Assembly: GCA_033060915.1 (NCBI GenBank)
Contig: CM065389.1
Span: 13,166,001-13,230,000, forward strand
DNA length: 64,000 nucleotides
Direction of reading: 5' to 3'
Source of the DNA: Euryodendron excelsum
Taxonomy: Eukaryota; Streptophyta; Magnoliopsida; Ericales; Pentaphylacaceae
Shown here: piece after piece, positions 1,924 through 60,400 of the stretch
Layout: each line of letters begins with the position of its first letter
Numbering within the stretch: position 1 is the first letter of the stretch
The notes under the pieces: model-generated
The model's input: only the letters and a program-made list of their open reading frames with translations
Told to the model about the DNA's origin: nothing
Database searches by the model: none
Made by a program: the position numbers and the translations under genes

Positions 1924-4900
1924 ACAGAGCCTCATTCAACGTGAAAGGGGTCTGCAAACTTAACCTAAGAATCTTATATTTCGATATACAGAGCTCGAGC
2001 ACCTCCAAAAACCTTAGTTTCCTTAGGTTCTCCAAACCCTAGCCACTCTACACTAAACCCTAGCCACCATACACAAACCCTAGCCTCCTATACACTCATA
2101 CACTCCCCCATACACTCATACACTAGCCTTCAACCATCCTTTGAAGACTTGAAGAGTTGCCATCCAAAGCTTGAAGACAACTCTTGAAGACTGAAGGTGA
2201 AGATCAAGACAAAGACCGAAGACCAAAGACCGAAGACAGCGCGGCGCGCAAAATAAAGAAGACATACGGTAGGTTTTCTCTTTAATTTTCTGCACTTCCC
2301 CCCTCTCTCTTCTCTCTCCAACCCACTTGGGTTTTCTCTATTTTAATCCCCCATCTCTTTCCCCCCCTTTCTTTGCATGCTTGAAACAAGGGGATTCCTG
2401 GTCCATGTGTAGGATTGGGCTATTGGAGAGTTACCGTGTCGGGGGCTTTCTTCTAGCCTAACCAAAGACCACGTGGGTCCGGCCCCCTTGATTATGTGGT
2501 GAAGCCTTAACCTTGTATGTTCACGACCCCAAATTGCATTGTGCATATCATAGTCTTGCATCTCCCAAAAACCGTTTTCAAAGTTGTTTTTCAAAACGTT
2601 TTCAAACTTGTTTTCAAAATTGCATCAAAATCTCTTTTTCAAAAACTTATTTTCAAAACCACAATTCTAGGGTGATTCTAGCCTTTCCATGGCTAGGGTT
2701 GCTTTAGGAAAGTGTTACATTAAAAGTGACCTTTTTGGTCTATATTTTCAAATCTTATTGTTTTTCAAAACCGCTTTCCTAAAGTGGTTCTAGCCTTCCT
2801 CTGGTTAGAATTGCTTTAGGAAAGTGAGATGTTTTTACTCCTTCTAAAAACTCTCTTTTCAAAAAATTTCTTCCTAAAAATCTCTTTTTCAACATACTTC
2901 CCAAAAACTCTTCTTTCCAAAATTGTTTTCTAAAAACTCCTTTCAAAACTTTCTTTTTTTCAATTCCTTTCCAAAACGCTCTCTTCAAAGTCCACTTTTC
3001 AAAAACTTTCCCTAGATCTCTTTCCTAGAAAAATTCTCCCCAAAAAATCTTTCTAAAAACTCTCTTCCCAAAATCTTCCTTCGAGAAATTCCACTCTAGG
3101 ATTTTTCTTCTAAAATCTTCGTTTCCAAAAACACACTTTTCAAAAACTCCTTCTCTTTAAAATCTTTTTCCAAAAACTCTATCTTCAGATTCACTTTCCA
3201 AAAACTCCTCCCTAGGATTCCCTTCTAGAAAACCTTCGTTTTCAAAAACGCACTTTCCAAAAATCCTCTCTTTTTAGAGCCCAAGTCAAGCCCTAGAACC
3301 TACAATTAGGAAACCCCAATTTTCTTTCCAAAAACATGATTTTCAAACTTTGCCCCGAACCTAGGTTTCCAAAACCTCTTGTTTTTATATCCAAACTATC
3401 CACGTTTTCAAAACCTATTTTCTACGTCGAAACTACAATTTTTCAAAACTAGGGTTTCTAGAATCTCCTTTTCCAAATCCTTGCCAAATCCTATCTTCCC
3501 TTTAGGAAACCAAATCAAATCTCATCGTTTAGGAAACTAGATCCCGTCCTCCGTTTTTGGAAACAAAATCCAACCTTTCTCTTTTAGAAACCAAATCCAA
3601 TCTCTTCTTAATCCAAACCTTTCCTAATTCAATTCCTTCCTAAACCATAAGTTTCCTAAACCTAAACTTTAAATATTTCCTTAAATTTCAAAATTCAACT
3701 CTTTCTTAATTCAACTCCTTCCTAAACTTGAACATAAAAATCTTTCCTAAGTTTTAAAACTCAACTTTCAAATCTTTCCTAAACTCAAACCTTTCCTAAT
3801 CTCAAGATTTTCTAAAACTCTAAAACTTTCTAAATCTTAAACTTTCTAAATTTTAAATCTTTCCAAATTCAAAACTTTCTAAATTTGAAACCTTCTTAAG
3901 TTAAATCTTTCTAAGCCTAGAAACTTTCTAAATTCTAAACTCTCTTAAACTTCAAATCTTTCCAAATCTAAGACTTTTCTAAACTCAAAACTTTCTTAAT
4001 TTAAGACTTTCTTAAGTTGAAACTTTCTTAATTCAAACATTTTCTAAACTAAAAACTTTCCTTTTTCAAACCTTTCCTAAAACAAAACATTTCTAAATTC
4101 AAAACTTCCCTTTTTTCAAAACATTTCTAAATTCAAAACTTTCCAATTTCCAAACTTTCTTAAATTCAAAACTTTCCTAAATTCAAAACTTTCCTAATTC
4201 GAAAACTTTCCAAAAATGAAACTTTCCTAATTCGAAACTTTCCTAATCGAAATTTTTTTCCTAAATTCCAAGTTTCCAAATCTTTTAAGATCTTTCCAAA
4301 TCTAACATTCCAATCTAATCTTTCCTAAGTCTAGGTTTCCTAAAACCAGGTCTTTCCAAAATCAATCTTTCTAAAGCAAGTCCAATCTTCTCAAATTCAA
4401 TCTCCTTTTCTAATCTCAAATCAAATCCAGTTTTCAATTCAATCTCTTTCTTCTAATCCAATTTCTCTCTTCAAATCAATCTCTTTTCAATCGGGCTCCG
4501 GTCCGAACTACGACTGACCTGATTCCCCCAAAGGGATACGTAGGCAACCTTCATAGGTGCGGTCACAACATTTTTCAAACTTTCAATTCCACTCTCATGG
4601 GTGCGGTTTCCAAAATCTTTTCAAATCTCAAATTCCAATCTATTTTCAAACTTTCCAATTTAAATTCTATTTCTTCAAATCTATTTTCAAATCAAATCAA
4701 TTTCTTTTCAAATTAATTTCTATTTTCCAATTCTCTCATCTTGTACTTGCATATCATGCATCATGCTAAATTAGTTTTCAAACATTGTTTTTCAAAGTGA
4801 ATAGGGTTGAACTATAGTTAGTCGAAGACTCTCATAGGTGAATCTAGGGTAGATTGACATGTAGGTACCAAAAGGGCGGGGTAGGGTGATAGCTTAGTGC

Positions 4901-5294
4901 GTCTTCCCTACACGTAACCAACCTCCGAACTTAGGATCATTGATTTCAAAGACCAAAAGGAGTTATTTTTCTAAAAAGGGCTAAATATTTTCCAAAGGTT
5001 GCCAAACAACCTGTTTTCCTTAAAAACCCTCTCTTGAGGAGATATTTTCAAAATCGTTTTTCAAAAACCCTAAGTGTAGTTTTCGGATTATGCTTAGTTT
5101 TTAGGTGACCTAACTCACCTTAATCAAGTTGGGTGGCGACTCCGAATCTTTTTCAAAAGCCCTTTATTCAAACCTGTTTTCAATTCAAACCTAATCGCAC
5201 TCATTCTTCTAGGAGGGTGAGTTCTAACGAGAGAGTACAACATTTTTCCCACTTAGGTGAGTATTCCTCGAGTGCGAAAAATCTGGGCGCGACA

Positions 5295-7859
5295 GTCAAC
5301 CCCATGTTCAAGTCATAGATTGGCCGTAATGTAGAGGTCTACGTGAATGATATGTTGGTGAAGAGCAAGGAGGCCACCAACCACCTGCGGGACCTCGTAG
5401 AGACGTTCCAAACTCTCCGCAAGTACCGAATGAAACTCAACCCCACCAAGTGTGCCTTCGGCATCGCCTCGGGCAAGTTCTTGGGCTTCATGGTGTCACA
5501 GAGGGGGACTGAGGCAAACCCAGAGAAGATCCAAGCCATCATCGACATGTAGGGGCCCCCGACGACAAAGGACGTTCAGTGCCTGGCAGGACGTGTTGTT
5601 GCCCTGAATAGGTTCATCTCTCGGTCCACCGACAAGTGTCTGCCGTTCTTCAAGATCCTACGCAAGGCATTCGAGTGGAATGAGGAGTGTGAAGTAGCCT
5701 TTGGTCAATTCAAACAATTCCTGAGCTTAGTCCCACTGCTCAGCCAAACCGTCCCAGGGGAGGAATTGTTTCTCTATTTGGTTGTGTCGGCAACAACAGT
5801 GAGCTCAGCTCTTGTCTGAGAAGAAGGGGGGGATCCAAAAGCCAGTATATTACACCAGTCATGCCTTACGTGGAGCGGAGGAATGGTACCCGAAGATGGA
5901 ACTCATGGCCCTTGCGCTGGTGACTACAGCCCGACGCTTGAGGCCCTACTTTCAAGCCTACACGATCGTGGTTCTCACTGACCAGCCCCTGAAGCACATC
6001 CTACACAAGCCCGAGACGTCAGGGCGACTAGTGAAATGGTCCGTTGAACTTAGCTAGTTCGACATCCACTACCAACCCCGACTGGCGATCAAAGGGCAGG
6101 CTACTGCGGATTTCATCGTAGAATTCACGAACCCGCCCCCTGCCACCCCTGAAGCTGACCTTCCCGACACCCACTGGGTCTTGAATGTTGATGGTTCTTC
6201 CACTCATGATTCCGGTGGTGCCGGCATGGTCCTCGTCACCCTCGATGGCTACAAAATGGAATATGCACTCCACTTCAAGTTCCCTGCCACCAACAATGTT
6301 GCAGAGTACGAAGCACTCATTGCCGGTCTTAGAATGGCTCAGCGAATGGGGGTAGAATAGATAGTTTTGCGAAGCGAGTCTCAATTGGTGGTGGAACAAG
6401 TCCAGGGAGAGTATGAAGCTAGAGAAGACAACATGAAGCAATATTGCCAAGTGGCGAAGAGCTTGGCTAGAAGGTTTGCGAAGATACTCCTGGAACGTGT
6501 CCCTAGATTACAGAATGAAGAGGCAGACCGACTGGCTAGGATAGCCTCCTCAAACGAGACCGACCCGAACGTCCCAATTGAGATTCTCGATTCACCAAGC
6601 ATTCAGAACCCGGAAGTCGACCAGATCGAGCCCGAATCCTCATGGATGACCCATATCAAGAACTACTTGGAGAACAGAACCCTGCCTGAAGATCGGAATG
6701 AGGCGAGGCAAATTCAATACCGTTTGAGCAGATACTCTACAAAAGGGGGCATACCATGCCGCTGCTTCGTTGCGCCAGTAAGGAAGAGGCAGACTACATA
6801 ATGCGGGAGGTCCACGAAGGGGTGTGTAGGAACCACTCTAGTGGCCGGTCTCTTGGCAAGAAGATACTACGAACGGCCTTCTATTGGCCCACGATCGAGA
6901 AAGATGCTCAGGAATTCGTTAAGAAGTGTGACAAGTGCCAACGGTTCGCCAGTATCCCAAGATTACCCTCGCAGGAGCTGACCCCGATCCAGACCCCTTG
7001 GCCGTTCGTGCAGTGGGGGATCGATATCGTGGGACCATTACCGCTCAGCAAAGGACATACCAAATTTGTAGTGGTGGCGATCGACTACTTCACAAAGTGG
7101 GCGGAGGTAGAGGCCCTACCGACAATCATGGAGGAGAAGATGAAGAAGTTTTTGTGACAGAATATTGTGTGCAGGTTTGGAATCCCCAAGGTTGTCATCA
7201 CGGACAACGGGAAGCAGTTCAAGGGTAGACAGTTCAACAAATTATGCACTGACCTAGGGACAAGCCACCATGCTTCGTCCCCAGAGCATCCTCAGGCAAA
7301 CGGCCAAGTTGAAGTCACCAATCGGTCCCTCTTGAAGATCCTCAAGACGAAGTTGGAGAAGGCCAAGGGCTTGTGGGCAGAGGAGCTCCATAACATCCTA
7401 TGGGCCTATAGAACAACGGAAAGAGTGTCCACGGGGCAGACGCCGTTCTCACTTACCTTCGGCACCGAAGCTGTCATCCCAGTAGAGATTGGTCTCCCTA
7501 GCCCTAGAACGGTGCAGTTCGACCCTATGACCAACGGCGAGGCCCTAAATGTGGATCTGGATCTATTAGAGGAAAGGAGACTACAGATAGCCATGAGAGT
7601 GGCGACCTACCAATAGAAGATGCGCCAGTACCACAATTCCAGAGTTCAGCCAAAAGACTTCACGACCGGGGACCTTGTTTTGAAAAGAGTCAACCAGTCG
7701 ACCAAGGATCCTAGAGAGGGAAAGCTCGGACCCAATTGGGAAGGACCCTACCAGGTGGTCGGCAGTACCAGAAAGGGGATATACAGGTTAAAGAACTCAG
7801 AAGGCAAGGAGCTCCCGCACCCGTGGCACGCAGAACATCTAAGGAAGTACTACACTTGA
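5295..7859 (+). pseudogene. Tat-lineage Ty3 pol: RT end, RNase H, second RNase H, integrase
   Basis: The reading starts in the RT palm; the catalytic box appears as YVNDM (5337-5351), with the first Asp changed to Asn. RNase H follows at about 5640-6060, then a second, archaeal-type RNase H at about 6170-6560 (starting near NVDGSS, with NNVAEYEALIAGLR inside), and integrase at 6756-7859 with the HHCC finger (HEGVCRNH ... CDKCQ), D in GIDIVGP, D in ITDNGKQF, and E in the QANGQVE segment. Dual RNase H is the hallmark of the Tat/Ogre branch of Ty3. In-frame stops occur at 5316, after VELS (6055), in GVE*IV (6358), in KFL* (7155) and in YQ* (7614). The upstream half of pol is displaced by LTR 0/A and lies outside the window. 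Not functional. Confidence 0.88.
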
Positions 7860-7967
7860 AAGGCTCCTACTTGCAATTCTCCAAAATATCAATAAAAGCG
7901 ATTGTTCAACAAATTGTCCATATGTATCGACTTTGAATTTATCTACTTGCGTGGAAAAGACATTAAA
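7860..7967. other. Tat spacer after pol
   Basis: About 100 bp after the pol stop lead into the 63-bp array. Contains CAATAAAAGCG near 7890, a possible polyadenylation signal for the pol transcript. Nothing else is seen. Confidence 0.3.
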
Positions 7968-8320
7968 TCTGCTCGGCCAAGTGTCGAGCAGAGCCAGAGG
8001 GTCTTAAGTGGCAATGACACAGAAATTGAATCTGCTCGGTCAAGTGCCGAGCAGAGCTAGAGGGCCTTAAGTGGCAATGGCACAGAAATTGAATCTGCTT
8101 GGCCAAGTGCCGAGCAGAGCCAGAGGGCCTTAATTGGCAATGGCACAGAAATTGAATCTGCTCGGCCAAGTGCCGAGCAGAGCCAGAGGGCCTTAAGTGG
8201 CAATGGCACAGAAATTGAATCTGCTCGGCCAAGTGCCGAGCAGAACTAGAGAGCCTTTAGTGGCAATGGCACATAAATTGAATCTGCTCGGCGGTTGGCC
8301 GAGCAGATCCAGAAGGCCTT
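7968..8320. repeat. 63-bp hairpin tandem array, six units
   Basis: Units start at 7968, 8031, 8094, 8157, 8220 and 8283, exactly 63 bp apart, the last one diverged. Each unit carries CTGCTCGGC, a 5-base loop and GCCGAGCAG, a perfect 9-bp stem in most units. Because the period is a multiple of three, the minus strand stays open (7963-8232) as a 21-residue repeat, but there is no independent sign that it is translated. The array lies between the end of pol (+) and the end of the antisense ORF (-), so it separates two convergent reading units. Confidence 0.88.
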
Positions 8321-15910: not shown

Positions 15911-16071
15911 TACAAGCCCGCCCAGGCTGACGCCAGTGGGCCCCACAGCATCTCTCTTATTTGGTGGAGTGCCCTAGTGGGTGCCAATAATTGGGGTACG
16001 TCCATCTGAAGAGCCTATATAAATAGGCTCCCCTCCCTCTTTGATGGCTACATCGCTACTTCTGTAAATCA
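15911..16071 (+). repeat. Left terminal repeat of the viral insertion
   Basis: Pairs with 18041-18201; five differences in 161 bp, four of them transitions. It begins at the AC that follows the Rep nick in TAATATT/AC (plus one T that may be host). It contains the virion-sense TATA box. Possible Rep-binding iterons GGAGT (about 15966) and GGGGT (about 15993) lie in it; that is a weak guess. Confidence 0.88.
16013..16026 (+). promoter_or_regulatory. Virion-sense promoter TATA box
   Basis: GCCTATATAAATAGGC is a near-palindrome around TATATAAATA, about 95 bp before the ATG of the movement-protein-like ORF. The same box occurs in the right repeat (about 18143-18156), where it would drive outward into host DNA. 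Confidence 0.7.
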
Positions 16072-16116
16072 GAAGGGGTATGTAATCACACATTATTTGA
16101 GAGAGGACATAAGAAA

Positions 16117-16899
16117 ATGGCAACTGCAGGAGCTCATGTCATCTTGTCGGTTACTTTCTCAGTGGAGGAAGCAGTGAAACTTCGACTTCCTATGTTTACG
16201 TCATTGCGTAGAACGATTAATAAGGCATTGAAGATAGATCGACTGGACATAACGTACGAGCCTATGTGTGCCATTAATAGTGAAGGATTAGTCACCGTGT
16301 GTGTTAAAGATGAACGCATCCAGGATCCTTCGGCACAGACCCAATGCATGTTCGTCTTCCCGGTTAGGTGCAGAATTAAATGTACATATTTTGGGTCGTC
16401 GTGGGTGTCTGCTACGGTAGAGAAACTACCGTGGAATTGTACATATCGACTAACAGAGACAAATATAGCGACAGGGGTTAATTACTGTATGATTACAGGA
16501 TACTTAAAGTTTGCAGAATCCAGTAATCTGGGAGACACTATGTTGCGTCCTCCTATGGTGGAGGTATTGAGCGATAATTATTCAACTAGCGATGTCAATG
16601 TGTGGCATGTAGGAGAAGCTACAATGGACGCGAAAATGTTGCGGACAATGTCAGTACCGCGATTAGAATATCGCAAGACAAATGTGTTAACCAGAGTAAT
16701 TGGGTCAGATGCACATTCGATATTGCCATTTGCGACTGATGAAGATGAAATTAAACATCGTCACTCCACGTCAGTCTCAAAAATTGGACCCTCGGCGTCT
16801 CAGATTGGTGTCGATCCTGGATGCGCAAGTGTTTCCCTCCCTATCCATGATCTAGTCGCTGGAATAATATCCGTGCTACAAGATAGGGAGAGGGATTGA
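16117..16899 (+). CDS. BC1/30K-like viral movement protein, 260 aa, intact frame
   Basis: The product resembles begomovirus BC1-type movement proteins, members of the 30K superfamily that carry viral DNA through plasmodesmata at the cell periphery. What I see: a 30K core with the conserved Asp in VCVKDER (about residue 65), then FPVRC (81-85), YFGSSW (91-96), a PW followed by an aromatic/YRL segment (105-112), TNI and a TGYLKF strand (126-132), and RPPMVEVLS (144-152). The length is a little short of the usual 290-300. The ATG is in good context (AAAATGGC) and follows a TATA box. It lies on the virion strand, as defined by TAATATTAC, whereas BC1 is complementary-sense in begomoviruses; virion-sense movement proteins of this type are reported in citlodaviruses. 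No internal stop or frameshift despite mutations in the terminal repeats. Expression in the plant is unknown. Confidence 0.78.
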   Translation: MATAGAHVILSVTFSVEEAVKLRLPMFTSLRRTINKALKIDRLDITYEPMCAINSEGLVTVCVKDERIQDPSAQTQCMFVFPVRCRIKCTYFGSSWVSATVEKLPWNCTYRLTETNIATGVNYCMITGYLKFAESSNLGDTMLRPPMVEVLSDNYSTSDVNVWHVGEATMDAKMLRTMSVPRLEYRKTNVLTRVIGSDAHSILPFATDEDEIKHRHSTSVSKIGPSASQIGVDPGCASVSLPIHDLVAGIISVLQDRERD

Positions 16900-17047
16900 G
16901 ATACTGTAAATGCGAAGTCCAATATTAATATTAGATGAATATAAGAATAGTTTGCATGAAGTCAACATAGGGAGAGGGATCCAGAGAGTGCGAATGTAAA
17001 GCCCAATATTAATATTTGATGAATAAAACTGTAGTTGGCAAATAGTA
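16880..17047 (+). repeat. Direct duplication of about 85 bp at the movement-gene 3' end
   Basis: ATAGGGAGAGGGAT at about 16884 and 16967 each starts a unit continuing through CCAATATTAATATT and GATGAATA. The first unit overlaps the last codons and stop of the movement-protein ORF. The second unit ends in AATAAA, a likely polyadenylation signal. Confidence 0.75.
17022..17027 (+). terminator. Polyadenylation signal AATAAA, virion sense
   Basis: GATGAATAAAACTG lies 120 bp after the movement-protein stop, before the 3' end of the converging ORF, the expected place in an ambisense geminivirus-type molecule. Confidence 0.5.
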
Positions 17048-17135
17048 CTCTAAGATATTACACACGTACATACAAACACAACAAAGTTAAAATCATTTAT
17101 ATGTCAAGGTCTGCGCCAGCTGCAACATCTTCCTC

Positions 17136-17597
17136 TTAAGAATCAGCGAGTCTTGTTCGACGAGGGCCTACTATTAGTGGCCCCGTTTGTAATTCACGCT
17201 TGTCGTCGTCGTGCTGGTGGAAGTATCGCAAATGCTTTGGCTCTGCATAGTCAAAGTCTGGAAGTTTCTGTAGAAACTCCGCGAAATGAAGGTACCATAG
17301 CTCCATGCTAGATACTCCAGCAGTACGGCATCCGGTTTGGCATGCAAGCTTGATGCGTTTAAGAAAAGTATGCGCACGGTTGTCGTCCAACTGTTCGTCA
17401 CAGTCCATGACAATCTTGAATTCCTCGTAATAGTGGTAGAACTGCAGCAATCTCCGTGCTGGGTAATTCATGCGAAGCAATGCATAGATTGTATTAGAAG
17501 AAGTGTTCGTCAAAGTCAGAGTGATGGGCTTTAGTTCCTTGTCGTCATTCGAAACTAAGTCCTCCCAAAGGCAACCTACCTTGCTAATATCGAACAT
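17136..17597 (-). CDS. Unrecognised complementary-sense viral ORF, 153 aa
   Basis: Complementary-sense ORF of the viral insertion, with a TATA box 37 bp upstream of its ATG. I do not recognise it: no rolling-circle HUH or Walker motifs of Rep, no coat-protein signature, no signal peptide and no clear membrane segment. Visible features are an N-terminal half with a Thr/Leu-rich strand (about residues 24-31), an aromatic FYHYYEEF segment (53-60), acidic DCDEQLDD (65-72), cysteines at 9, 66, 86 and 90, a Trp/aromatic SMELWYLHFAEF helix-like segment (97-108), and a basic GPRRTRL near the C-terminus (144-150). By position it takes the place held by the movement protein in begomovirus DNA-B. It could be a nuclear shuttle or silencing suppressor, but nothing in the sequence shows this. 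Confidence 0.6.
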   Translation of the reverse strand: MFDISKVGCLWEDLVSNDDKELKPITLTLTNTSSNTIYALLRMNYPARRLLQFYHYYEEFKIVMDCDEQLDDNRAHTFLKRIKLACQTGCRTAGVSSMELWYLHFAEFLQKLPDFDYAEPKHLRYFHQHDDDKRELQTGPLIVGPRRTRLADS

Positions 17598-17632
17598 GTT
17601 GTACAGAATACTATTATGGCCATTGAGTTTGT

Positions 17633-17641
17633 TATATATAG
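17633..17641 (-). promoter_or_regulatory. Complementary-sense TATA box
   Basis: The minus strand reads TATATATAAC about 37 bp upstream of the ATG at 17597. It faces away from the stem-loop. Confidence 0.5.
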
Positions 17642-18020
17642 AAAACGGTGGAAAATGTACATAATTTTAAAAAATATTTGTAATTTAGTGAAACGTGTTA
17701 AGTACGACATCATACATACGGATTATATAATTATATAATAAGGCGTAGTTTGAAATATCTGCGTGCGAGTACCGGTATCTCCATCTCCAAACAATGGCAC
17801 TCGAGGCAACTTTTTGAAAGACTTTCTCCTAACGTGCATCGAGTATCGAGTGTTTACTATTATATATAGCATATTACTTGACAAGCCTGCCGTTGGATTC
17901 GATTACACATGTCGCGATCCAAACCGTTGTACTAAAAGGTGAATATAATTCAAATATTCAATAATGTGTGGAAGGACTAAGTACGAAAAGGAAATATTTT
18001 TCAAATTTGGCATCAATAGT
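17642..18020. other. Intergenic region of the viral circle
   Basis: Non-coding part upstream of the stem-loop, AT-rich, with no convincing iteron pair on this side. GAGTATCGAGTG-like short repeats near 17838 are the only structure noticed. Confidence 0.5.
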
Positions 18021-18021
18021 G

Positions 18022-18053
18022 GGGCGGGCGCTAATAATATTACAAGCCCGCCC
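18022..18053 (+). promoter_or_regulatory. Rolling-circle origin stem-loop with TAATATTAC
   Basis: GGGCGGGC (18022-18029) pairs with GCCCGCCC (18046-18053) around a 16-base loop that contains TAATATTAC at 18035-18043. This nonanucleotide is the Rep nick site (TAATATT/AC) of geminiviruses and relatives, and it defines the plus strand as virion sense. Confidence 0.95.
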
Positions 18054-18201
18054 AGGCTGACGCTAGTGGGCCCCACAGCATCTCTCTTATTTGGTGGAGT
18101 GCCCTAGTGGATGCCAGTAATTGGGGTACGTCCATCTGAAGAGCCTATATAAATAGGCTCCCCTCCCTCTTAGATGGCTGCATCGCTACTTCTGTAAATC
18201 A
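18041..18201 (+). repeat. Right terminal repeat of the viral insertion
   Basis: Second copy of 15911-16071. It ends at GTAAATCA; beyond that the two copies diverge completely, which marks the right edge of the insertion. Confidence 0.88.
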
Positions 18202-22300: not shown

Positions 22301-22958
22301 CCCAATAAAGGAATATTTAGGCAACCCTCTTGGGTGCGGTTACAACTTTTCTCAAGTTTCCCATTCCCACAACCTCTTTCAGACTTCAAATCCTCTCTTC
22401 AGATCTATTTTTAAAATCAAATCCTTTTTCTTGCATTTGCATATCATGCATCATATAATTCTTTTCGAAGTGGATAGTATTGGACATTTATTAATTGGAG
22501 ATTCTAAATGAATGAACCTAGGGTGAAAAGACACGTAGATACTGCAAGGGGGGGATATGGTGATAGCCTAGTGCATCTTCCCTATACGTAACCAACCTCT
22601 GAACCTAAAATCACTGTTTTCAAAGACCAAAATAGAGTTATTTTCAAAAAAGGCTTAAATTATTTCAAAGGTTGCCAAACAACCTGTTTTCTTTAAAAAC
22701 CCTCTCTTGAGGAAGTTTTTCAAAATCTTTTCAAAAACCATAAGTTTAATCTTTAGATTGTACTTAGTTTTAGGTGAGCTAACTCACCTTAACAAAGTTA
22801 AGTGCCGACTCCAAACCTTTTTCCAAAAGCCCTTATTCAAGTCAATTTCCAATTCAAACCTAATCACATTTGTCCTTCTAGGAAAATGAGTTCTAACGAG
22901 AAAGTATCGTGTTTTTTTCATTTATATTTTCTTAAGTGCGAAAAATCAGAACGCGATA
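19353..22958 (+). mobile_element. Large LTR (copy B)
   Basis: Starts TGTTAACACCCC..., with CTGCTCGGCAATCTCC close behind, matching the start at 60675 (TGTAAGCATCCC...CTCGGCAATCTCC). Contains two to three of the TTTTGCCCCTAG repeats, a 21-bp near-palindrome GGCACCACTAGTAGTGGTGCC (20457), TATAAATA at 20533-20540, and the leader of CTTTCTAAATTCAAA units. Ends AACGCGATA (expected GCGACA) followed by a primer-binding site. Length 3606 bp. No gene inside; the short ORFs are T/C-rich leader. Confidence 0.8.
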
Positions 22959-35866: not shown

Positions 35867-36663
35867 TCTGGACAAATTAGTGCGGCGCCCTCGCTCCCGC
35901 GGCAAGCTCAGTGCCCCGCTACTTAGCCTCGTTTAAACAGCTCCAAGAGCTTTTCTTAAGCCAGGCCCCACGCCTGCATGGCTCTGGCCAAAACAAGCAC
36001 TGGCGCAAGGCAGGTCCCGTGCCTAGCATGCCTCAAGGCCCCGTGCCTCACTATCTAACAGGCTTAGGCACCTAACTGTCTAACTCATCCTCGCTCGGGA
36101 CCCCTCTCCATGGGTAATGGACTGGAGGCTAGAACCAAAGGGACCGTTGAGCCACGCGCCTCACGAGCGTGCGGGGGTCAGTCCCATCAACCAGTTAAGA
36201 GAGAGAGATCTACCCTCAAAATCACTCGAATACCATATCTTAAGCATTAAATGCTGACCCGACGCACATTTAATACAGTAGACACGTGGCGAGTGATGGC
36301 TGGACAATCGCCTGACACCGTGGTAGTGCACATCGAATCGCCCGTCGCAACCCCTGACATGGCTTCACCAGGTCATGATGGCGAGACTCAGGCCTGCCCA
36401 GTCATAGGACGCCACGTGTCCGCACAGTGTCAATTACTACTTACTATAAATACTCTCAGCACATTTATGACAAACTTATACAACCTAATCACATTTATTA
36501 CACAAGCGACCATAGGCTCGTGAATATCTCTCTCTTATCTGCCCTTGGTTCTCGCCCCTCCATAGACGGGAGACTCGAGCGAGTTATTCTCAGCGACTGC
36601 TAAGACTCGCAAACGGGCCCACGCCCTGGTCAACCCTAGGCTCTCGGTCCATATATACAAACA
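35867..36663 (+). mobile_element. 5' LTR of the gag-protease element
   Basis: Aligns with 39118-39931 at about 90%. Landmarks: GCGGCGCCCTCGC, CGTGGCTCAACGGTCC region, CACGTG at 36283-36288 and 36413-36418, TATAAATA at 36445-36452, and the end CATATATACAAACA. The exact left end is uncertain. Confidence 0.7.
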
Positions 36664-36665
36664 AT

Positions 36666-38930
36666 ATGACTGGCACTCATGAGACGACTAACTCTGGTCT
36701 TAACACAGGCCAAGTCACCAACACAGGGGCAAAACTCACCCCTGGCATCCACCTAGAGAACCAGGGCCTCCAGGTCCTTTTGTTTATCCAATCCCAAGGC
36801 GAGCAGATTCGGACGCTCAACGACAGCGTGTCTGCTATTCTAAAGTCGCATCAAACCCTGATGGACACCATGCAGGCCATGCAGAGTGGGCAAGCTGCCC
36901 CTAACACCCCCGCTCCCATCCCCGTAACCCCACTCGACCTGTCTGGAGCTGAAGCTCTTCAACGTGTAACTAGGAGCCTGACACCCCCCACTCCTGACCA
37001 AACACCCAACCTTAGTACCAGTAACACAACTCCTCCACACGGAACAACTAGGCGAGTCATGTTCCAACATGATCCAATCCTTACCTCCACCTAGCTGTAA
37101 GACCAGATGCGCGCGATGATTAGATAGGAAACCACCGCTCCACCTTTTAATGGCGAACTTGACTTTCGCCCACCATACGCTGAGTCTATCCAGACACTAC
37201 CGTAGCCAGAGGGGTACGTTACGCCTAAATTCACCAAGTTTGATGGAAAAAGTGGAAATGCCAAAGAGCATGTCATTCGGTTTGTAGACTCGCTAGGCGT
37301 CCACGCAGCCGATCTTAACCTTCGGCAAAGAGAGTTTTCCAAATCTCTCTCCGACCGAGCTTATTTTTAGTGTGCTAACCTCCCGCCCAACTCCATCCTT
37401 TCTTGGGATGATATGGTGCAGAAATTCGTTGGCAAGTTTTTTTACGCCGATGAACCTCTTTCGACATTTGACCTCATCCACGAGTCCCAAGGAGAAACTA
37501 AAGGCCTACTGTCATTTGTCAAGAGGTTCCGCGAAAAAGCCCTTGAAGTTCAGGACCTAGTAGTCGAGAAACAGTTGGTCAACATTTGTGTCAAAGGAAT
37601 GCAAAATCGATACAAAATACACGTGATCAACCATAAATTCATGGATTTCGCTAGCTTAATCATCGCCGCGCGGAACATTACCATTGCTGTGAGAGACTCC
37701 GCGCGCAACAACTTCCATTCCCAATCTCCTCAACAGCTGGCTCCCTCATGGCGAAGCCGTCCCCGCCGACCATCCGTATATGCAGCAGCCCCAGCGATTC
37801 ATGACAACCCCAGTGGCAGGAAGCACCTCTTCGGTGAAGACCCCCCTCCCTTGCCAGTGTCCATCAAAACAGCCATAGCGTTATTACAAACTTGGGTCGC
37901 CGATGGCCAGATCGTCCTTCCCGAAGTCAAGAAACAACCCACGGAGCGAGATAGGCTCAGCCCCAACATTTGCATCTACCACCAAACCATCACACATTTC
38001 ACCCAAGCTGTTATGCCCTCAGGCACATTTTTCTCAAGCAAAAGTAAGATGACACGTTACAGCTCTTTGAGACTGATGTACTCAATGATCCCCTCCCTAA
38101 GTATCGAAATGATAACGATGTCGTTCTTATGATTTCCCTTCATGCCGAGTCTGAAGGCCTGGCCATTTGTCACATCTCCGAGCCCCAGTCGCAAGACCCA
38201 AATTTCAACCACCACCGTGCTACCATTCTTTAAAACTCCACAAAGTTCAAACATTTCTTCGATCAACTTGGCCTATCGTCCACCACCAGGTACGAGGCTA
38301 CCAACGCTCTTTTACAGGCGGCCGACGCAAATGGCGAAGCTTGTATGGACACTAGCAGCTCGGTCAAGCGCTTCTTCAAAGAAAACCACCTCGTCATCAC
38401 CTTCTCTGAGGCAGACCGAATGTACCCCTATCCCTATAACCGCCCCCTCTATCTGCCAATTTTCATCCAAGACATGGAATTTCAAAGAGGATTCATGGAC
38501 AGCTGAGCATCGGTCAACATTATGCCCTACGCCACCTTCCAAGCCGTGGGGCTACCAAAAGAACGATTAGTCCGAGAGCCCCTCGATATTCGAGGTTTTA
38601 GCAGTCACTCCCACAAGTCCCTAGGATACACGAGGGTTGATCTTCGTGTTGGCCCTATTCACTCCTCCACCAAGTTCCACGTCATTGATACAGATACCAA
38701 CTACCACGTGTTGCTCAGTCAAACCTAGCTCCACCAGTACGGAGCCATCCCCTCCACTTATCACCAATGCATGAAAGCAATCTAAAACAACGACGTTATC
38801 ACCGTCCCTGCATCCTTGCACCCGTTCCGAGCTGTGGAAGCTCACATGGCCAAAGATACTCTTTATGACGAATTGGATGAATCTGACGCCCCTGCCCCTT
38901 TGTACAGCACCCAGTTGCCTCGCTGGTCAG
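36666..38930 (+). pseudogene. Gag and aspartic protease of an element without RT
   Basis: An N-terminal part (36666-37094) has a coiled coil (about residues 40-75). The Ty3-type Gag core follows (37200-37690): PKFTKFDGKSGNAKEHVIRF, SWDDMVQKFVGKFF and FVKRFREKALEV. A linker with ALLQTWVADGQI (about 37870) precedes a protease-like region (about 38490-38730) in which the active-site segment reads with a stop just before ASVNIMPYATF, the expected Asp-containing turn being damaged. Stops: 37094, about 37128, 37204, 37368 and several later; there is also a frame change near 38040. No RT, RNase H or integrase is found before the 3' LTR, so the element was non-autonomous or lost pol by deletion. Confidence 0.75.
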
Positions 38931-39551
38931 ATATTGCCAACGGGCCCCAACAACACCTCAGCTTGCCTCAAAAGTGAGGCCGTGCCACCTCACCCGCTCG
39001 AGGCTGTCCAAAAAGTGCCTAACCCTCACCACCACACGAAACCGCCCCAATTATCACCCAGTTCCATCAAGCTGATGGCAACATGGTCTACAGCTTATGA
39101 CGATACGCGTGGCCAACCCATGCCTAGACAAACCAGCGCGGCGCCCTCGCCCCCGCGGCAGGGTCAGCACTCTGCTACTAAGCCCCATTCAAACAGCTCC
39201 AAGAGCTTCAATTCTCTTAAGCCAAGTCCCACACCTACATGGCTCCGGCCAAAACAAGCACCGACGGAAGGCAGGCCTCATGCCTAGCACACCTTAAGGC
39301 CCCGCGCTTCACTATCTAACAAGCTCAGGCCCCTAACTGTCTAACTCACCCTCGCTCAGGACCCCTTTCCGTGGGTAGTGGACTGGAGGCTAGAACCAAA
39401 TGGACCGTTGAGCCGCGCGCCTCACGAGCACGTGGGGATCAATCCCATCAATCAGCTAAGAGAGAGAGAGATATATATATCTACCCTTAAAACCACTCAA
39501 ATATCATATCTTAAGAATTAAATGCTGACTCGACTCACATTTAATACAGTA

Positions 39552-41556: not shown

Positions 41557-42779
41557 ATCATGGTAACGGTCCTCTAGAAAAATGTCATTAACTACCCACT
41601 TAACAAACCGATGTGACGTTTCTAATGTCCTAAGAAATGTACCATCTCATACTCGTACTTGAAAATTTTGATCTTATGTGCACGTGTATAGAATTGGAAG
41701 ATACATCTTAATTAACATTTGATTGGTAAGAGGAGAAGGTAAACTAAAGAAAGCTTGCAAAAACTATTAAACAGAATTTTTGTATAAAATTCTCATATAA
41801 AATGACATAGTTTTTCTAGTCCTTTCATTTCAAATTAAAACACTTATCATTTTGGCTCATAATTGATTTAAGGTACCACTACATCATTATTGCAAATGAA
41901 TTTAAACACGCGAGCGTTGAGAGAGGAGTCGAGTTTTAAGCACAGTTACTAAACGCCGTCGAGAAAACATGCATTATCCTTTCCTCTTTGGAAAATGCTT
42001 CTTTCAGAAAAAGTTATACAAAAAATTTTATTAAAATAATGTGACAGTAATATTTTATAATTAAAAATTACCATAATAAATGATTTATTTTTAAATAAAT
42101 AACTTTCATTTAATCATATTATTGTTATAATAAATTTTGTACGAAATTTATGTTTCGAAGACATTTCTCTTTTCTCTTCGATCAACGAAGACCTCTAGAC
42201 GTGCCTGGACGGTCAGGAATTGATAAGATTCGCGTATCTTTCTCTGCTCTGAATAAAAGTGCGTTCTTTATTCAATTCGAATACCACAATTCGAGTACCA
42301 CATGGCGCTATAGGTGAGGTAGGGTGGGGTTTTTTTTTTATATTGTGTTTAGGGACTTTCGTGTTTGGAAGAAAGGGACGATTACGCATTGATCATTGAC
42401 TAAAGGAGAAAGCTCTTTCGTAATCAAGTTTTATAATGATATTTATTTGGTATTGTTATAAAGTGAAAGAAAATGTCATATATAATCTCATTACTCTAAA
42501 GTAAAAAGCTCTTATTTGATCATATTATTTTGATAATAAATTATGTATAAATTTTTTAATTGCATAATATTACTTTCCGTTAAATGATTTGTATAGTCTT
42601 TCGTCTGCTTACCTCCTTACATTACAAATCAAATTTCAGCACAATCACATTAGCTAAATGGTTGGATAATGCTATATAAACAAAAAAATTTATTTAAATG
42701 GTGTGATTGAATGAGAGTCATTTACTTATAAACATGATTGCACTCCAAAAGTACGATTACAACACCTTAATTTGTCTTT
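41557..42779. other. AT-rich ASR flank and intergenic DNA
   Basis: GATCTTATGTGCACGTGTATAGAA at 41670 is the ASR-flank phrase also at 13090 and 45487. TTATAAAATTTTATTAAAATAATGTGAC-like sequence recurs in this region (42015, 42530, 42690). No gene. Confidence 0.45.
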
Positions 42780-51480: not shown

Positions 51481-54319
51481 TGTCGTTCCAAAGTTTTTAG
51501 ACCAAGTCCTTTCAGCTTGGAAAAACACGAAACTCTATTATTAGAACTCATCCTCCTAAAGGACAAGTACGACTAAGTTTAAACTTGAAATTGGTTTGAT
51601 AAAAGGTGTTTTTAGAAAAATAGGAGTCGCCACCTAACTTGATTAAGGTGAGTTAGGTCACCTAAAACTAAGTATTAATCTGAAGATTAAACTTAGGATT
51701 TTTGAAAAAGATTTTGAAAAACTCCCCCGAGAGAGGATTTTTGAGAAAATAGGTTGTTTGGCAACATTTAGAAAGTTTTAAGCCATTTTAGAAAATAACT
51801 CCATTTTGGTTTTTCGAAAATAGAAATCTATGGTCCAGGGGTTAGTTACGTGTAAGCAAGATATCCTAAGATCATCACCCTACCCCGCCCTTTCGGTACC
51901 TACATGTCTAATCACCCTTAGTTCACTCACTAGAATAACCAGTTAACATTATTCACTTAATATCCACTTTAGAACTTTGAAAATGGGGTTTAGTCATCAC
52001 TTTTTAGATGAATGATGTATGATGCGAGTTCTGAAAATATGAGAGTTTTAAAGGGGTTTGAGATAAAAATTTTGAATTGGTAGAAATTTTTGAGAAGGGG
52101 ATTGGGGTTGAAATAAAAGTTATGACCATACCATTTTAGGTTACCTACGTATCTTATTTGGCGAGAATCAGGTTATTCGTAGTTCGGGCAAGAACCCGAT
52201 GGAAAATAGGTGCATTAGGGTCTTTGAAAAGTTTTGAAGACACTTTGAGGTCTTTGAAAAAGTTTGAAGATACTTTGAGATCTTTTGAAAAAGAGAACTT
52301 GAGAGTTTTGATTTGGAATCGGATGTTGGAGTGTTTTGAAGTAGAACTTTGAGACTTTTGAAAAAAGGGTTTTGAAATGCCTTGAGATGTATTTAGAACA
52401 ACTCAAGGGAGTTTTGGGAGTTCTTTTGAAATGACTCAAGAGTGTTTTGAAAGTGTTTTGAAGTCTTGTTTTGAAACCCTTGGAAGTATGATTTTGGAGT
52501 GTTTTAGTAAATTGGTTTTTGAAAAGTTTTCAAAAGTGGTTTTTGAAAACACTTAAGACCTTGAAACTCCAATATGGAAAACCTTAGATGTTGTTCTTGA
52601 TATATCACCTTCCTTTGGAATTCCTAACCATAGAAGGGGTAAGGACACCTTAGGATTGTGAGTTCTTGACCTTTTTAAAGGTAGAGTGTAAGAGTATTTG
52701 AAAAGGTTATGAAGTCGGTTTTTGAAATCTCAATAGAGTAAGAGGTTTTGGAAAATATGAGTCATGAAACTAGTTTTATATAGAAGGATCATTTAAAAGG
52801 GGTTCATTATAGTTGAAACCTTAAAGTATGCTAACCTAAGTTGGGTTGGCCTAAGGTTAGGGGTGACCTAAGGTTAACTAACTTAGGTTAGGTTAACCTA
52901 GAGTAAATGTGACCTAGGGTTAACTAACTAGGGTTAGGTTTGTGGCGGCCCGGTTTTTGGGTATCCAAGGTCCTTTTGGCTCGGAGATCAAAAACACAGA
53001 ACTCTATCACTAGAAATCATCCTCCTAAAAGGACGAGTGTGACTAGGTTTGAATTAAAAATTGATTTGATTAAGGGCTTTTTAAGAAAATAGGAGTCGCT
53101 ACCTAACTTGATTAAGGTGAGTTTGGTCACCTAAAACTAAGTGTTAATCCGAAGATTAAACTTAGGGTTTTTGGAAAGGATTTTGAAAACTCTCTCAAGA
53201 GTGGGTTTTTAAGAAAATAGGTGGTTTGGCAACCTTTGAAAAGATTTAAGCCCTTTTGGAAAATAACTCCATTTTCCTCTTTCGAAAACAGAAATTTATG
53301 GTCCGGGGGTTGGTTACGTGTAGGGAAGATATCCTAAGATCATCACCCTACCCCGCCCTTTCAGTACCTACATGTCTAATCACCCTTTTTGTTCACTCAC
53401 TAGAATAACCGGTTACCATTGTCCACTTAATATCCACTTTAGAATTTTGAAAAAAGGGTTTAGTCATCACTTTTTGGATGAATGATGCATGATACAAGTT
53501 TTTGGGAAGAAGTTCGAAAATATGGGGGTTTTGAAAGAGTTTGGAATAGAAATTTTAAATTGATTGGAATTTTTGAAAAAGGGAATTGGAGTTGAAATAG
53601 AAATTATGACTGCACCATTTTAGGTTGCCTACGTATCTCATTTGGCGAGAATCAGGTCATTCGTAGTTCGGGCAAGAGCCCGATGGAAAATAGGCGCGTT
53701 AGGGCCTTTGAAAAGTTTGAAGATGCTTTGAGGTCTTTGGAAAAGTTCAAGACACTTTGAGATCTTTGGAAAAGTTGAAGACGCTTTGTGGTCTCGAAAG
53801 CTTTGACTTGGAATGGGATAGCGGAGTGTTTTGAAAATATTTTTGGATTAAATCAAGGGGTTTTTGGTAAATGTTTTGGAGTAAATCAAGAGAGTTTGAG
53901 AGTAGTTTGAAGTCTTGTTTTAAAAGCCTTGGAGGTATGACTTTGGAATGTTTTGATAAATTAGTTTTTGAAAGTGGTTTTTGAAAAGGGTTAAGGGTTT
54001 GGAATCCTAATATGGACAACCTTGGAGGTTGCTCTTAACATATCACCTTCCTTTGGGGTCCTTAACCATAAGAGGGCTAGGGACACCATAGGTTTGTGAC
54101 CCTTTGAAAACATTTTTCGAAATGCCTTGAAGTTGAAGCGTAAGGGATTTGAAGAGGTTATGGAGTTGGCTTTTTGAAATCTCAAGAGAATAGGAGGGTT
54201 TGGAAAAATAAGTAATGGGTATAGTTTAAAATTGAAAGATCATTTAAGAAGGGTTCATGAGTTGAAACCTTGAAGCATACTAACCTATGTTGTGTCAGCC
54301 TATGGTTAGGGGTGACCTA

Positions 54320-54590
54320 AGATTAGGAGGACTTAGGGTTAACTAACTAGGGTTAAGTTAACTTGAGGTGAGTGAACTAGGGTCAAGTTAACCTAGGGTT
54401 GGATAACTAGGGTCGAATTAACCTAGGGTTAGGTAACTAGGGTCAAGTTAACCTAGGGTTTGGAAACTAGGATCAAGTTAACCTAGGGTTAGGTAACTAG
54501 GGTCAAGTTAACCTAGGGTTGGTCAACTAGGGTCAAGTTAACCTAGGGCTAGGTTACTAGAGTCAAGTTAACCTAGGGTTAAATTGGAAG
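54320..54590. repeat. Tandem TAACTAGGGTCAAGTTAACC array
   Basis: About eight units of 28-30 bp of the form TAACTAGGGTCAAGTTAACC then TAGGGTTRG. Partial arrays of the same unit flank the inserted LTR at 52850-52940 and 57633-57775. Forward copies A-C lack it. Confidence 0.85.
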
Positions 54591-57480: not shown

Positions 57481-60400
57481 TGGCTCCAGCGGCTCCTTGT
57501 GAGCCTGAGAAGCGACCAGTTGGTTGGATTGGAGATTGAAGGGCTCGTCTTGAGCTTGTATGTGCTGTGATGTTTGAAACTGAGCCCAATCGGGCCGCAG
57601 ATACCCGAGCAGGCAAAAATAGAATGCTTACAAGGTTAACCTTGGGTTGAATAACTAGGGTTAAGTTAATTTAGGGTTGGATAACTAGGGTCAAGTTAAC
57701 CTAGGGTTAGACAACTAGGGTCAAGTTAATCTAGGGTTTGACAACTAGGGTCAAGTTAAACTAGGGTTAGATTGGAAGGTGGTTTTGAAAAGTAGTTTTA
57801 TGCATTTTTTAAAAGAGTTTTAGAAAACAAATTATGTTATGTAAAGGACTTGGGTAGACAACCCTTTTGAAGATCATTTCTATGAAAATTTGACTCTAGC
57901 CGTGAATATGGGTTATATGGTTAGTGCTTGAAAACCATTCCAAAGAAGATTTTCCTAGGGCCATTATAACCTTTATCTTGGATTTCAAGAGTCAATATAA
58001 TGATAACAACTTTTGGAAAACCACTTTTAATGCAAAGATGGAGAGAATAAATCTTTGAAAACCATTTTTAAGAAAAAGGTTTTGAAAACTATTTTTAAAG
58101 GAAGCCATTCTAACAAATTAGGGTTTTTATGGCCAATGTAAAGGGAGACCACTCAAGAGAGGGTTCCATGGGGCCACCCCAACCACTAAACTTGAGAGAA
58201 TGGAAACCTTAGAAATCAAAGAGTTTGAAAACTACTTGTGTGCAAGAATAAAAAGAGAAGGGAATCATTCTAACAATTTAGGACTCCTATGGCCAATATA
58301 AAAGGCAGACCACTCAAGAGAGGGTTCCCTGAGCCATTTCAACCACTAAACTTGAAAGAATAGAAACCTTGGTAATTAGAGATTTTGAAAAACCATTTTC
58401 ATGCAAGTTTTAATGTAATGATGCAAAAGTGAGAGTTAGGAGTTAATGGGGGATTTTCTAAGGCATGATTTCTAAGGTTTCATCCTAAACTTCAAGGAAC
58501 GAACTCTTAGAACCCTTTGCAAGGAGTATGGAGCTTGAAAGTGGCATGAAAATAAAAATAATGCAAGCTTTGTAGAACATAGTTATAAACATGAAAATGA
58601 AGCCAAGCACACAAGACATGATCAAGATAACAAAATTTAAGGGGGTTATGAATACATACAAGGCTTTAGGCTACATCACATAATCAAGGGGCTCCTAGGC
58701 CATACCATCTTAAAGTAGGTTAATGAGAGATCCCCCTACATAGTGGCTTCTACTAGCTTTCCTCTAGGCATAAACTAAGAGCCCTCTTGACTTTAAGCAT
58801 GCAAGAAAGGGGGGTTGAAGATGGGGATTAAAATAGAGAATAGGCTAAATGGCTGGGAGGAAAAAGAAAAGAGTTGGAGAATACAAAAATGTAAAAGAAA
58901 TATCACATTTTGCCTTCTATGGATGCGTTGACTTGAACTTGGATGGCTTCAAGTAGGCTTGAGGGGCTGAAAGGAGGAGTTCTATGGTGTATAGGGCTAT
59001 GTAGGTGAAGTATATGGGTTAGGGGGAGGTGAAATCTAGCCTAAGTGTTTGAGGAGTGGGTTGTATATAGAGATTCGAGATTCTAGAGCAGTTTCAGCAG
59101 AGTTTCGTATCAATTTTCGGTTCTAGAATATGTAAAGGGGGAGGTTGTATTTATAGGCAATCTGGGAGGAGGCTGGCGCATGTGCTAAATGCGCCCTTCC
59201 AAAGTTTTCCCTGGCACATGTAGCACATGCACCAGTACTGTTCCATTACCAGAATGCCACGTGACACCCATTGTACTAGCTAAATCCTAACGGTTGATCG
59301 AACTTTGGTTGATTTAATCAAAATCTGGGCGCATGTAGCATACGCTCTGTCACTAGGATTGTTCGTTTAAACTTTGCCTCTATAATTGAGCAAACTGGGA
59401 AGGTGCTGGAGGAATTGATTGCACTCACGGTATTCTCCTAGGGTTTCTTATGAACTTTCGTGTTTTCAAAAAGTTCAAATGGTGTTCGAAAGTATGAGGT
59501 ATCGTCACGGGAAAGGTGTATAAAATTGTAAAAGTAGTTGTGATACGCTTCGCGGGGTTTCAAAAGTAGTTGTTCTTGTGTCGCATGATCGGGGTCTTCG
59601 AGAAGCGACCTTTCGGATCGGACCGTACTGATGGAAAGTTCTTTAGGAATACTTTCGGGAATTTCCTAATTTACACATTTCTCGAGTCGTTTGATGGTGC
59701 GTTTTAATCATGGAATTGGAAAAAAAGTCAACCTTGGCAGAGCGTTTGTGAGACGCTCTAGGGGTTACCGAAAGTAGTAGTTTTCAGGCCATGCGATGAG
59801 AGCTTTGGGAAGCGATCTCTCCAATCGAGCCGTATCGATGGAAAAATCTATGAACGAGCTTTTGAGAATTCTTCGGTTTCCGTATTTCTCAAGTCATTTG
59901 ACAGTGCGTTATAACTAGGGAATCGGGAGAAAAGGCAATTTTGGCGAAGCGTCTACAAGACGCTCCAGGGAATTTTTATCGAGTTATGGGTTTTTAACAT
60001 CGTAAGGTCCTTCTTAGGTTAAATAGGGGTGTATGACAAGATCCACCGTTCAATATCCTAGGACCAGTGTGGTTTTGGGGCGCGTTTGGGTTGCTAGGGG
60101 CAAAATGGTCATTTTGACTGCATCTGGTAGGAAATGGTCAGGAATGGATCGGAGTGTTATGTTAAGTGTGTCGGGTCATTAGAGGATGATTTCAAGAGAG
60201 TCTTTTACCGTTCGGTGGGGTTTGTGCAGTGTTGGGACGTTTAGGGGCAAAATGGTCACTTTAGCCAGAGTTAGTTGGAACGGGATCGGAATTGGACCGA
60301 ATGGCATGTGGAGTACCCCTAACTGCTTAGTAGCACTTTGGAATGGTGGACTTATTATCTTAAGGGATTTTAAACTTTCTCAAGACTTGCCTGGAGGCCC

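What the first reader, a model, noticed from the sequence alone, without database searches (positions are those of the whole stretch)
15911..18201. Endogenous geminivirus-like component of 2.13 kb with a movement protein on the virion strand and no Rep
Seen: stem-loop with TAATATTAC, a 161-bp terminal repeat giving a 2130-bp circle, a virion-sense BC1/30K-like ORF, an orphan complementary ORF, TATA boxes for both. Known: begomovirus DNA-B is about 2.6 kb and has the movement protein complementary-sense; citlodaviruses have a BC1-like protein in virion sense but on a 3.6-3.7 kb genome with Rep. Inference: this is a fossil of an undescribed multi-component ssDNA virus whose second component has a reversed layout, or a defective derivative of a citlodavirus-like genome.
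Basis: partly seen in the sequence, partly recalled or inferred. Interest (0 to 1): 0.92.

Follow-up and report, generated by a model that had tools for sequence, protein, structure and literature searches.

The report
Fossil DNA-B of olive-type geminivirus
A stretch of retroelement-rich, likely plant chromosomal DNA holds one 2.13-kb unit with a geminivirus-type movement-protein gene and a replication-origin stem-loop but no recognisable replication gene; it is likely the fossil of the second DNA circle of a two-part virus like one known from olive trees, and one end lies exactly at the predicted nick site of the origin, which would mean that a replication intermediate was what entered the chromosome.

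Summary
A 161-bp direct repeat (5 differences) bounds a 2130-bp unit. TAATATTAC sits in the loop of a perfect 8-bp G+C stem, one of only 2 such stems in 64 kb. The 260-aa virion-sense frame is a Gemini_BL1 movement protein (Pfam E 1.1e-31). In all 24 frames of 45 aa or more no other Pfam family reached its cut-off, so no Rep or coat protein was seen. The interpretation needs correcting: a two-part geminivirus whose second component has the movement protein in virion sense and an orphan complementary ORF is already described, Olea europaea geminivirus (OEGV, 2021; DNA-B 2763 nt). The window unit has the same gene order and orientations, and a printed OEGV peptide aligns collinearly with its movement protein. 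It is smaller and lies in chromosomal DNA; whether OEGV itself integrates is disputed in print. Distinctive here: the left end of the insert lies exactly at the Rep nick (TAATATT^AC), so a linear replication intermediate with its 5' end at the nick is the likely integrating form. Not settled: the host, a Rep-bearing partner and homology of the complementary ORF, because the protein search and the whole-genome search did not complete.

The parts
15911..16071 (+). Left copy of the 161-nt terminal direct repeat; it begins at the predicted Rep nick position (15911 = T shared with 18041, 15912 = base after the nick)
16016..16024 (+). Virion-sense TATA box, about 100 nt upstream of the movement-protein ATG (second copy at 18146-18154)
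16117..16899 (+). Movement-protein ORF, 260 aa, Gemini_BL1 (residues 30-188 match profile 31-188 of 276)
   Evidence: residues 126-155 align with a printed OEGV peptide
16879..17040 (+). 84-nt tandem duplication (79% alike) across the movement-protein stop codon; AATAAA at 17022 in the second copy, a possible poly(A) signal
17136..17597 (-). Complementary-sense ORF, 153 aa, no known family; similar place and same orientation as the orphan BC1 ORF (177 aa) of OEGV DNA-B
   Evidence: OEGV coordinates
17632..17640 (-). Complementary-sense TATA-like box upstream of the 153-aa ORF
17598..18041 (.). Intergenic region left of the nick; with the 205 nt from the nick to the movement-protein ATG it forms the 649-nt large intergenic region of the unit
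18020..18126 (.). Three iteron-like TGGGG cores: 18020 (+), 18071-18075 (-), 18122 (+); OEGV iterons are TGGGGA / TCCCCA by PMC8540022
18022..18053 (+). Origin stem-loop: perfect 8-bp stem 18022-18029 / 18046-18053 with TAATATTAC (18035-18043) in the loop; nick predicted at 18041^18042
18041..18201 (+). Right copy of the terminal direct repeat; the insert ends here, 160 nt past the nick

Best explanation
Window 15912-18201 is likely a fossil of the second (DNA-B-type) circle of an OEGV-like two-part geminivirus, which probably entered the chromosome as a linear strand of one unit plus 160 nt whose 5' end would have been made by the Rep nick at its origin. In life the circle would have carried a movement protein in virion sense for cell-to-cell spread and a complementary-sense protein of unknown role, and would have been nicked and replicated in trans by a Rep made from a partner circle sharing its origin (inferred; no partner was seen). 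Shown: the unit, its direct repeats, the origin stem-loop, the BL1-type gene, the lack of any other recognised Pfam family in its 24 frames of 45 aa or more, and the coincidence of the left end with the predicted nick. Inferred: kinship with OEGV, replication in trans, and the integrating intermediate. If the two repeat copies were identical at insertion, they have since drifted apart at 5 of 161 positions, so the insert is likely neither a recent event nor an episome joined in assembly; that both ORFs are still open is what chance alone would allow at that divergence.
For: BL1 movement protein E 1.1e-31. Gene order and orientation equal to OEGV DNA-B: window unit MP 206-988 and complementary ORF 1686-1225, counted from the nick; OEGV MP 309-1199 and BC1 1757-1224. 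The OEGV peptide printed in PMC8622421 (nt 708-809 of DNA-B, i.e. MP residues 134-167 by the coordinates of PMC8000510) aligns without gaps with window MP residues 126-155, 9 of 30 identical; 2 of 2000 shuffles score as high, against 1644 of 2000 for the complementary ORF. Three TGGGG cores by the origin where 0.16 would be expected at the window's mean density, a stretch chosen after the fact; OEGV iterons have the same core. Only Gemini_BL1 reaches its Pfam cut-off among 24 of 24 frames (45 aa or more) in the unit. Left end at the nick to the base, 3 of 2130 by chance within 1 nt. Repeat divergence 3.1%, interval 1.0-7.1%. Retroelement frames on both sides in the window.
Against: The unit (2130 nt) is shorter than OEGV DNA-B (2763) and below the family range of 2.5-5.2 kb in the ICTV profile. 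Homology of the complementary ORF to OEGV BC1 could not be tested: no sequence was at hand. The peptide match is short (30 residues, 30% identity). No DNA-A or Rep partner was found in the window, and the genome search did not complete. Only one insertion was seen, so the nick-exact end is a single event. The window MP does not match the last 88 of 276 positions of the Pfam profile. Fraxinus symptomless virus, which clusters with OEGV in a published tree, has no detected DNA-B (PMC8705360, abstract and Results read), so the two-part state is not shown to be general in that group.
Confidence: 0.72

Rival explanations
1. A defective, internally deleted derivative of a monopartite genome with a virion-sense BL1-like protein (citlodavirus-like, or like the 4.6-kb Camellia integron), which lost Rep and coat protein before integration and was replicated by its parent.
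For: Camellia sinensis holds an assembled 4.6-kb integron with coat protein, a putative movement protein and Rep, its Rep clade being sister to citrus, mulberry and Camellia dwarf-associated viruses (PMC7758297, section 3.7 and passages). The unit is small.
Against: No Rep or coat protein remnant in 24 of 24 frames of 45 aa or more. Both ORFs lie about where OEGV DNA-B has them. The 153-aa ORF matches no Pfam family above cut-off.
Confidence: 0.15
2. An ordinary begomovirus DNA-B whose coding block was inverted relative to the origin.
For: The MP is BL1-type, and begomovirus DNA-B carries an MP as BC1 beside a nuclear shuttle protein, BV1.
Against: The other ORF has no similarity to a nuclear shuttle protein or to any family above cut-off. 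OEGV gives the same layout without any inversion needing to be assumed.
Confidence: 0.04
3. Assembly artefact: an episomal virus circle joined into a plant contig.
For: The host could not be identified and its genome could not be searched (and later). The published disagreement on whether OEGV is integrated shows that the confusion is real.
Against: The two terminal repeat copies differ at 5 of 161 positions. A circle of one sequence opened at the nick would give identical copies.
Confidence: 0.05
4. A satellite-like molecule that captured a movement protein and depended on an unrelated helper virus.
For: It encodes no recognised Rep and is small.
Against: A satellite shares little but the stem-loop with its helper (stated for begomovirus satellites in PMC8000510); here the gene layout is that of OEGV DNA-B.
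Confidence: 0.04

Closest known systems
Olea europaea geminivirus (OEGV) DNA-B, 2763 nt (PMC8000510, PMC8540022, PMC8622421)
   Same: Virion-sense Gemini_BL1 movement protein, complementary-sense orphan ORF, no Rep, TAATATTAC stem-loop, TGGGG-type iteron cores; one printed OEGV peptide aligns collinearly with the window MP.
   Different: The window unit is 2130 nt with a large intergenic region of 649 against 1314 nt and a gap between the stop codons of 236 against 24 nt; MP 260 against 296 aa, complementary ORF 153 against 177 aa; it lies in chromosomal DNA with diverged terminal repeats.
Begomovirus DNA-B (ICTV profile PMC8744271, whole text read)
   Same: Second component with a BL1-type movement protein and no Rep.
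   Different: Begomovirus DNA-B carries the MP in complementary sense (BC1) and a nuclear shuttle protein in virion sense (BV1); here the MP is in virion sense and no shuttle protein is recognised.
Endogenous geminivirus-like elements of yam, tobacco, macadamia, Camellia, olive and others (PMC7758297 and PMC5014472, passages read; PMC8626973, abstract only)
   Same: Geminivirus-derived DNA integrated in a plant genome, in yam as tandem units with TAATATTAC; many Rep loci lie beside other geminivirus domains such as movement proteins.
   Different: The large survey (PMC7758297) was found through Rep; this unit has no Rep and would be missed by a Rep-based search.
Citlodavirus-like monopartite genomes
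   Same: BL1-like protein in virion sense.
   Different: They are larger and carry Rep and coat protein on the same molecule.

Membership tests
Geminiviridae (as an endogenous remnant) | TAATATTAC in the loop of a G+C-rich stem in an intergenic region with divergent genes | tested here: met
Geminiviridae (as an endogenous remnant) | A protein of a geminivirus family | tested here: met
   Gemini_BL1, E 1.1e-31
Geminiviridae (as an endogenous remnant) | Component size 2.5-5.2 kb | tested here: not met
   2130 nt; size range
OEGV-type DNA-B | MP in virion sense with an orphan ORF in complementary sense, stop codons facing each other | tested here: met
OEGV-type DNA-B | MP closest to the OEGV MP by tree | tested here: inconclusive
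   Only one 34-residue peptide was available; 2 of 2000 shuffles reach its score. Protein searches timed out.
OEGV-type DNA-B | Complementary ORF homologous to OEGV BC1 | not testable with these tools
   OEGV BC1 sequence not at hand; viral contigs gave no relative
OEGV-type DNA-B | Common region shared with a Rep-bearing DNA-A | not testable with these tools
   Apart from its own left repeat copy, no second place with the origin region in the window; the genome search unavailable (12 attempts)
Begomovirus DNA-B | MP complementary-sense and nuclear shuttle protein virion-sense | tested here: not met
   MP is virion-sense; no shuttle-protein hit
Monopartite BL1-bearing geminivirus (citlodavirus-like) | Rep and coat protein on the same molecule | tested here: not met
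   No such family in 24 of 24 frames; a deletion derivative is not excluded

The most novel reading that the evidence does not exclude
A fossil of an undescribed, unusually small (2.13 kb) Rep-less second component shows that OEGV-type reversed DNA-B is an old lineage that once reached a plant germ line, and its nick-exact 5' end records integration of a Rep-cleaved replication strand, a T-DNA-like entry in which the virus's own nick made one end of the insert.
Probability: 0.4. Interest if true: 0.72.

Novelty: new variant of a known kind. Interest (0 to 1): 0.55.

Why it matters
The large published survey of endogenous geminiviruses searched for Rep, so Rep-less second components would be overlooked; this unit shows that one can be preserved whole. 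If it is OEGV-like, it bears on the age of the reversed DNA-B layout and on the open question of whether OEGV-type sequences integrate. A nick-exact end makes the integrating intermediate testable from genome sequence alone, by asking whether other geminivirus insertions start at the same base.

Tried and rejected
Second TAATATTAC at 42565: no stem around it, rejected as chance. RloB and response-regulator hits of the 153-aa ORF (E 0.0088 and 0.009, far below the curated cut-offs) and a Sprouty hit of a 49-aa frame (E 0.11): rejected as chance. AlphaFold2 without an alignment gave mean pLDDT 44.8 (153-aa ORF) and 32.5 (MP); Foldseek against BFVD gave no match at E 0.001 or better for either (best 0.0086 for the MP model, a phage tail sheath at TM 0.13, and 0.13 for the other); no fold conclusion was drawn. 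PDB by sequence gave nothing convincing for the MP (best E 0.032). An 8-nt word shared by the two flanks (15869 and 18204) as a target-site duplication: 261 of 5000 random flank pairs share an 8-mer, rejected. Intact ORFs as a sign of selection: at half the repeat divergence the chance of no nonsense change is 0.57 (MP) and 0.72 (153-aa ORF), so not informative. Sequence relatives in viral contigs, genome contigs, phages and plasmids: none. Rfam at gathering scores: none in the window. One match of an origin-like pattern in viral contigs (locus L001, contig of 16107 bases) was not followed. Host species: not identified; of the 31 frames of 110 aa or more in the window, 23 were scanned with Pfam, and the hits outside the unit are retroelement domains. 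Corrected on checking: the stem control counted one stem at several positions and is replaced; the 14 of 24 frames first left unscanned were then scanned.
Full report
What is there. Window 15911-18201 is bounded by a 161-nt direct repeat whose copies are 2130 nt apart. The copies differ at 5 of 161 positions, four of them transitions, and no base matches beyond either end. At the right junction TAATATTAC (18035-18043) lies in the loop of a perfect 8-bp stem, 18022-18029 / 18046-18053. The nonanucleotide alone would not be remarkable (2 in the window, 0.69 expected), and the fold energy alone is modest (z -1.61). But only 2 distinct perfect 8-bp stems with at least 7 G+C and a loop of 9-23 nt exist in the 64 kb, and one of them is this one.

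The genes. The 260-aa virion-sense ORF (16117-16899) is a geminivirus BL1 movement protein by Pfam (E 1.1e-31, 111 bits, residues 30-188). The last 88 of the 276 profile positions are not matched. The 153-aa complementary ORF (17136-17597) has no family above a curated cut-off in Pfam or NCBIfam. All 24 frames of 45 aa or more in the unit were scanned with Pfam, and only Gemini_BL1 reached its cut-off; so no Rep, coat protein or nuclear shuttle protein was seen. Shorter remnants would be missed. The longest-ORF control gave 0 of 2000 Markov sequences with 260 aa or more and 9 of 2000 with 153 aa or more. TATA-like boxes lie upstream of both ORFs and AATAAA follows the movement-protein stop. 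An 84-nt tandem duplication spans that stop.

What it resembles. The layout is not new. Olea europaea geminivirus has two circles; its DNA-B (2763 nt) has a Gemini_BL1 protein in virion sense at 309-1199 and a complementary ORF of unknown function at 1757-1224, and shares a 348-nt common region with the Rep-bearing DNA-A (PMC8000510, Results part 1 of 2 and Discussion read; about 403 nt by PMC8540022, abstract and Results part 1 of 2 read). Counted from the nick, the window unit has its movement protein at 206-988 and its complementary ORF at 1686-1225. Its large intergenic region is 665 nt shorter (649 against 1314) and its two ORFs are 180 nt shorter together, offset by a gap between stop codons that is 212 nt longer (236 against 24). 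A 34-residue OEGV peptide printed in PMC8622421 (passages read) aligns without gaps with window MP residues 126-155, 9 of 30 identical; 2 of 2000 shuffles score as high. That paper ascribes the peptide to BC1, but its stated position, nt 708-809, lies inside the virion-sense movement protein by the coordinates of PMC8000510, which agrees with the alignment here (OEGV residues 135-164 against 126-155). OEGV iterons are TGGGGA / TCCCCA; the window has three TGGGG cores within 18020-18126 where its mean density would give 0.16. This stretch was chosen after the fact and is G+C-rich. Fraxinus symptomless virus clusters with OEGV in a published tree but no DNA-B was detected for it (PMC8705360, abstract and Results read).

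How it got there. The left repeat copy starts at the base where Rep would cut, TAATATT^AC (nick position as given in PMC8000510 and PMC8540022): 15912 is the first base after the nick, and 15911 is a T shared with 18041. The chance for a given end to fall within one base of the nick on a 2130-nt circle is 3 in 2130, or 6 in 2130 for either end. The right end lies 160 nt past the nick. The simplest reading is a linear strand of one unit plus 160 nt, with its 5' end made by the Rep nick, that was joined to chromosomal DNA. This is inferred from one event; a target duplication was looked for and not found above chance. Whether nick-exact ends have been reported before was searched once; of the 2 papers listed neither was opened, so no claim of priority is made.

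Age and state. If the repeat copies were identical at insertion, 3.1% divergence (1.0-7.1%) has accrued since. That argues against an episome joined in assembly. Both ORFs remain open, but at half that divergence the chance of no nonsense change is 0.57 and 0.72, so no selection can be inferred.

Surroundings. Retroelement domains lie elsewhere in the window on both sides: integrase zinc-binding, RNase H-like and gag above their cut-offs, integrase core and reverse transcriptase below theirs; no host gene was recognised in the 23 of 31 long frames scanned. The host is therefore likely a plant, not identified. The large published survey found endogenous geminivirus loci through Rep (PMC7758297, passages and section 3.7 read). 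It lists Rep homologues in olive, other geminivirus domains beside Rep in 1,601 of 2,165 extended loci, and nuclear-shuttle candidates in Dioscorea alata and Camellia sinensis. Paper searches for Gemini_BL1 with endogenous (1 paper) and for endogenous geminivirus with DNA-B from 2015 on (6 papers) listed no title or start of abstract on an endogenous reversed DNA-B; only papers held in that library were searched, and of the six listed only the OEGV paper was opened.

What could not be done. The protein database timed out in five calls and the genome search was busy in all 12 attempts, so there is no tree, no partner search beyond the window and no host name. Structure prediction without an alignment gave unusable models for both proteins.

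Verdict. Observation confirmed. Best reading: an inserted, diverged OEGV-type DNA-B, a new variant of a known kind; its distinctive points are small size, integration and a nick-exact end.

Noticed in passing
336-728, 4788-5180, 22462-22849: LTR-like direct repeat pair (92-95% alike, spacing 4452) with a third, more diverged copy; inverted relatives near 51599 and 53078.
   Followed up: no
6361-7613: Retroelement frames: RNase H-like (RVT_3), integrase zinc-binding domain, and an integrase core match just below its cut-off, followed by a 63-bp tandem repeat at 7958-8320.
   Followed up: partly
35951-39469: Direct repeats 35951-36208 / 39212-39469 (87%) around a Retrotrans_gag frame (37371-38129): a likely short LTR element with gag.
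   Followed up: partly
54334-54581 and 57635-57768: 30-bp minisatellite, its unit containing TAGGGTTAG in the first array, in two arrays about 3.2 kb apart.
   Followed up: no
16879-17040: 84-nt tandem duplication (79% alike) across the stop codon of the movement-protein ORF, so the ORF's 3' end may have changed length in the virus or after insertion.
   Followed up: partly
literature, PMC8622421 (no window coordinates): The paper places a possible nuclear localisation signal in OEGV 'BC1', but its coordinates (nt 708-809) and the alignment put that peptide in the virion-sense movement protein.
   Followed up: partly
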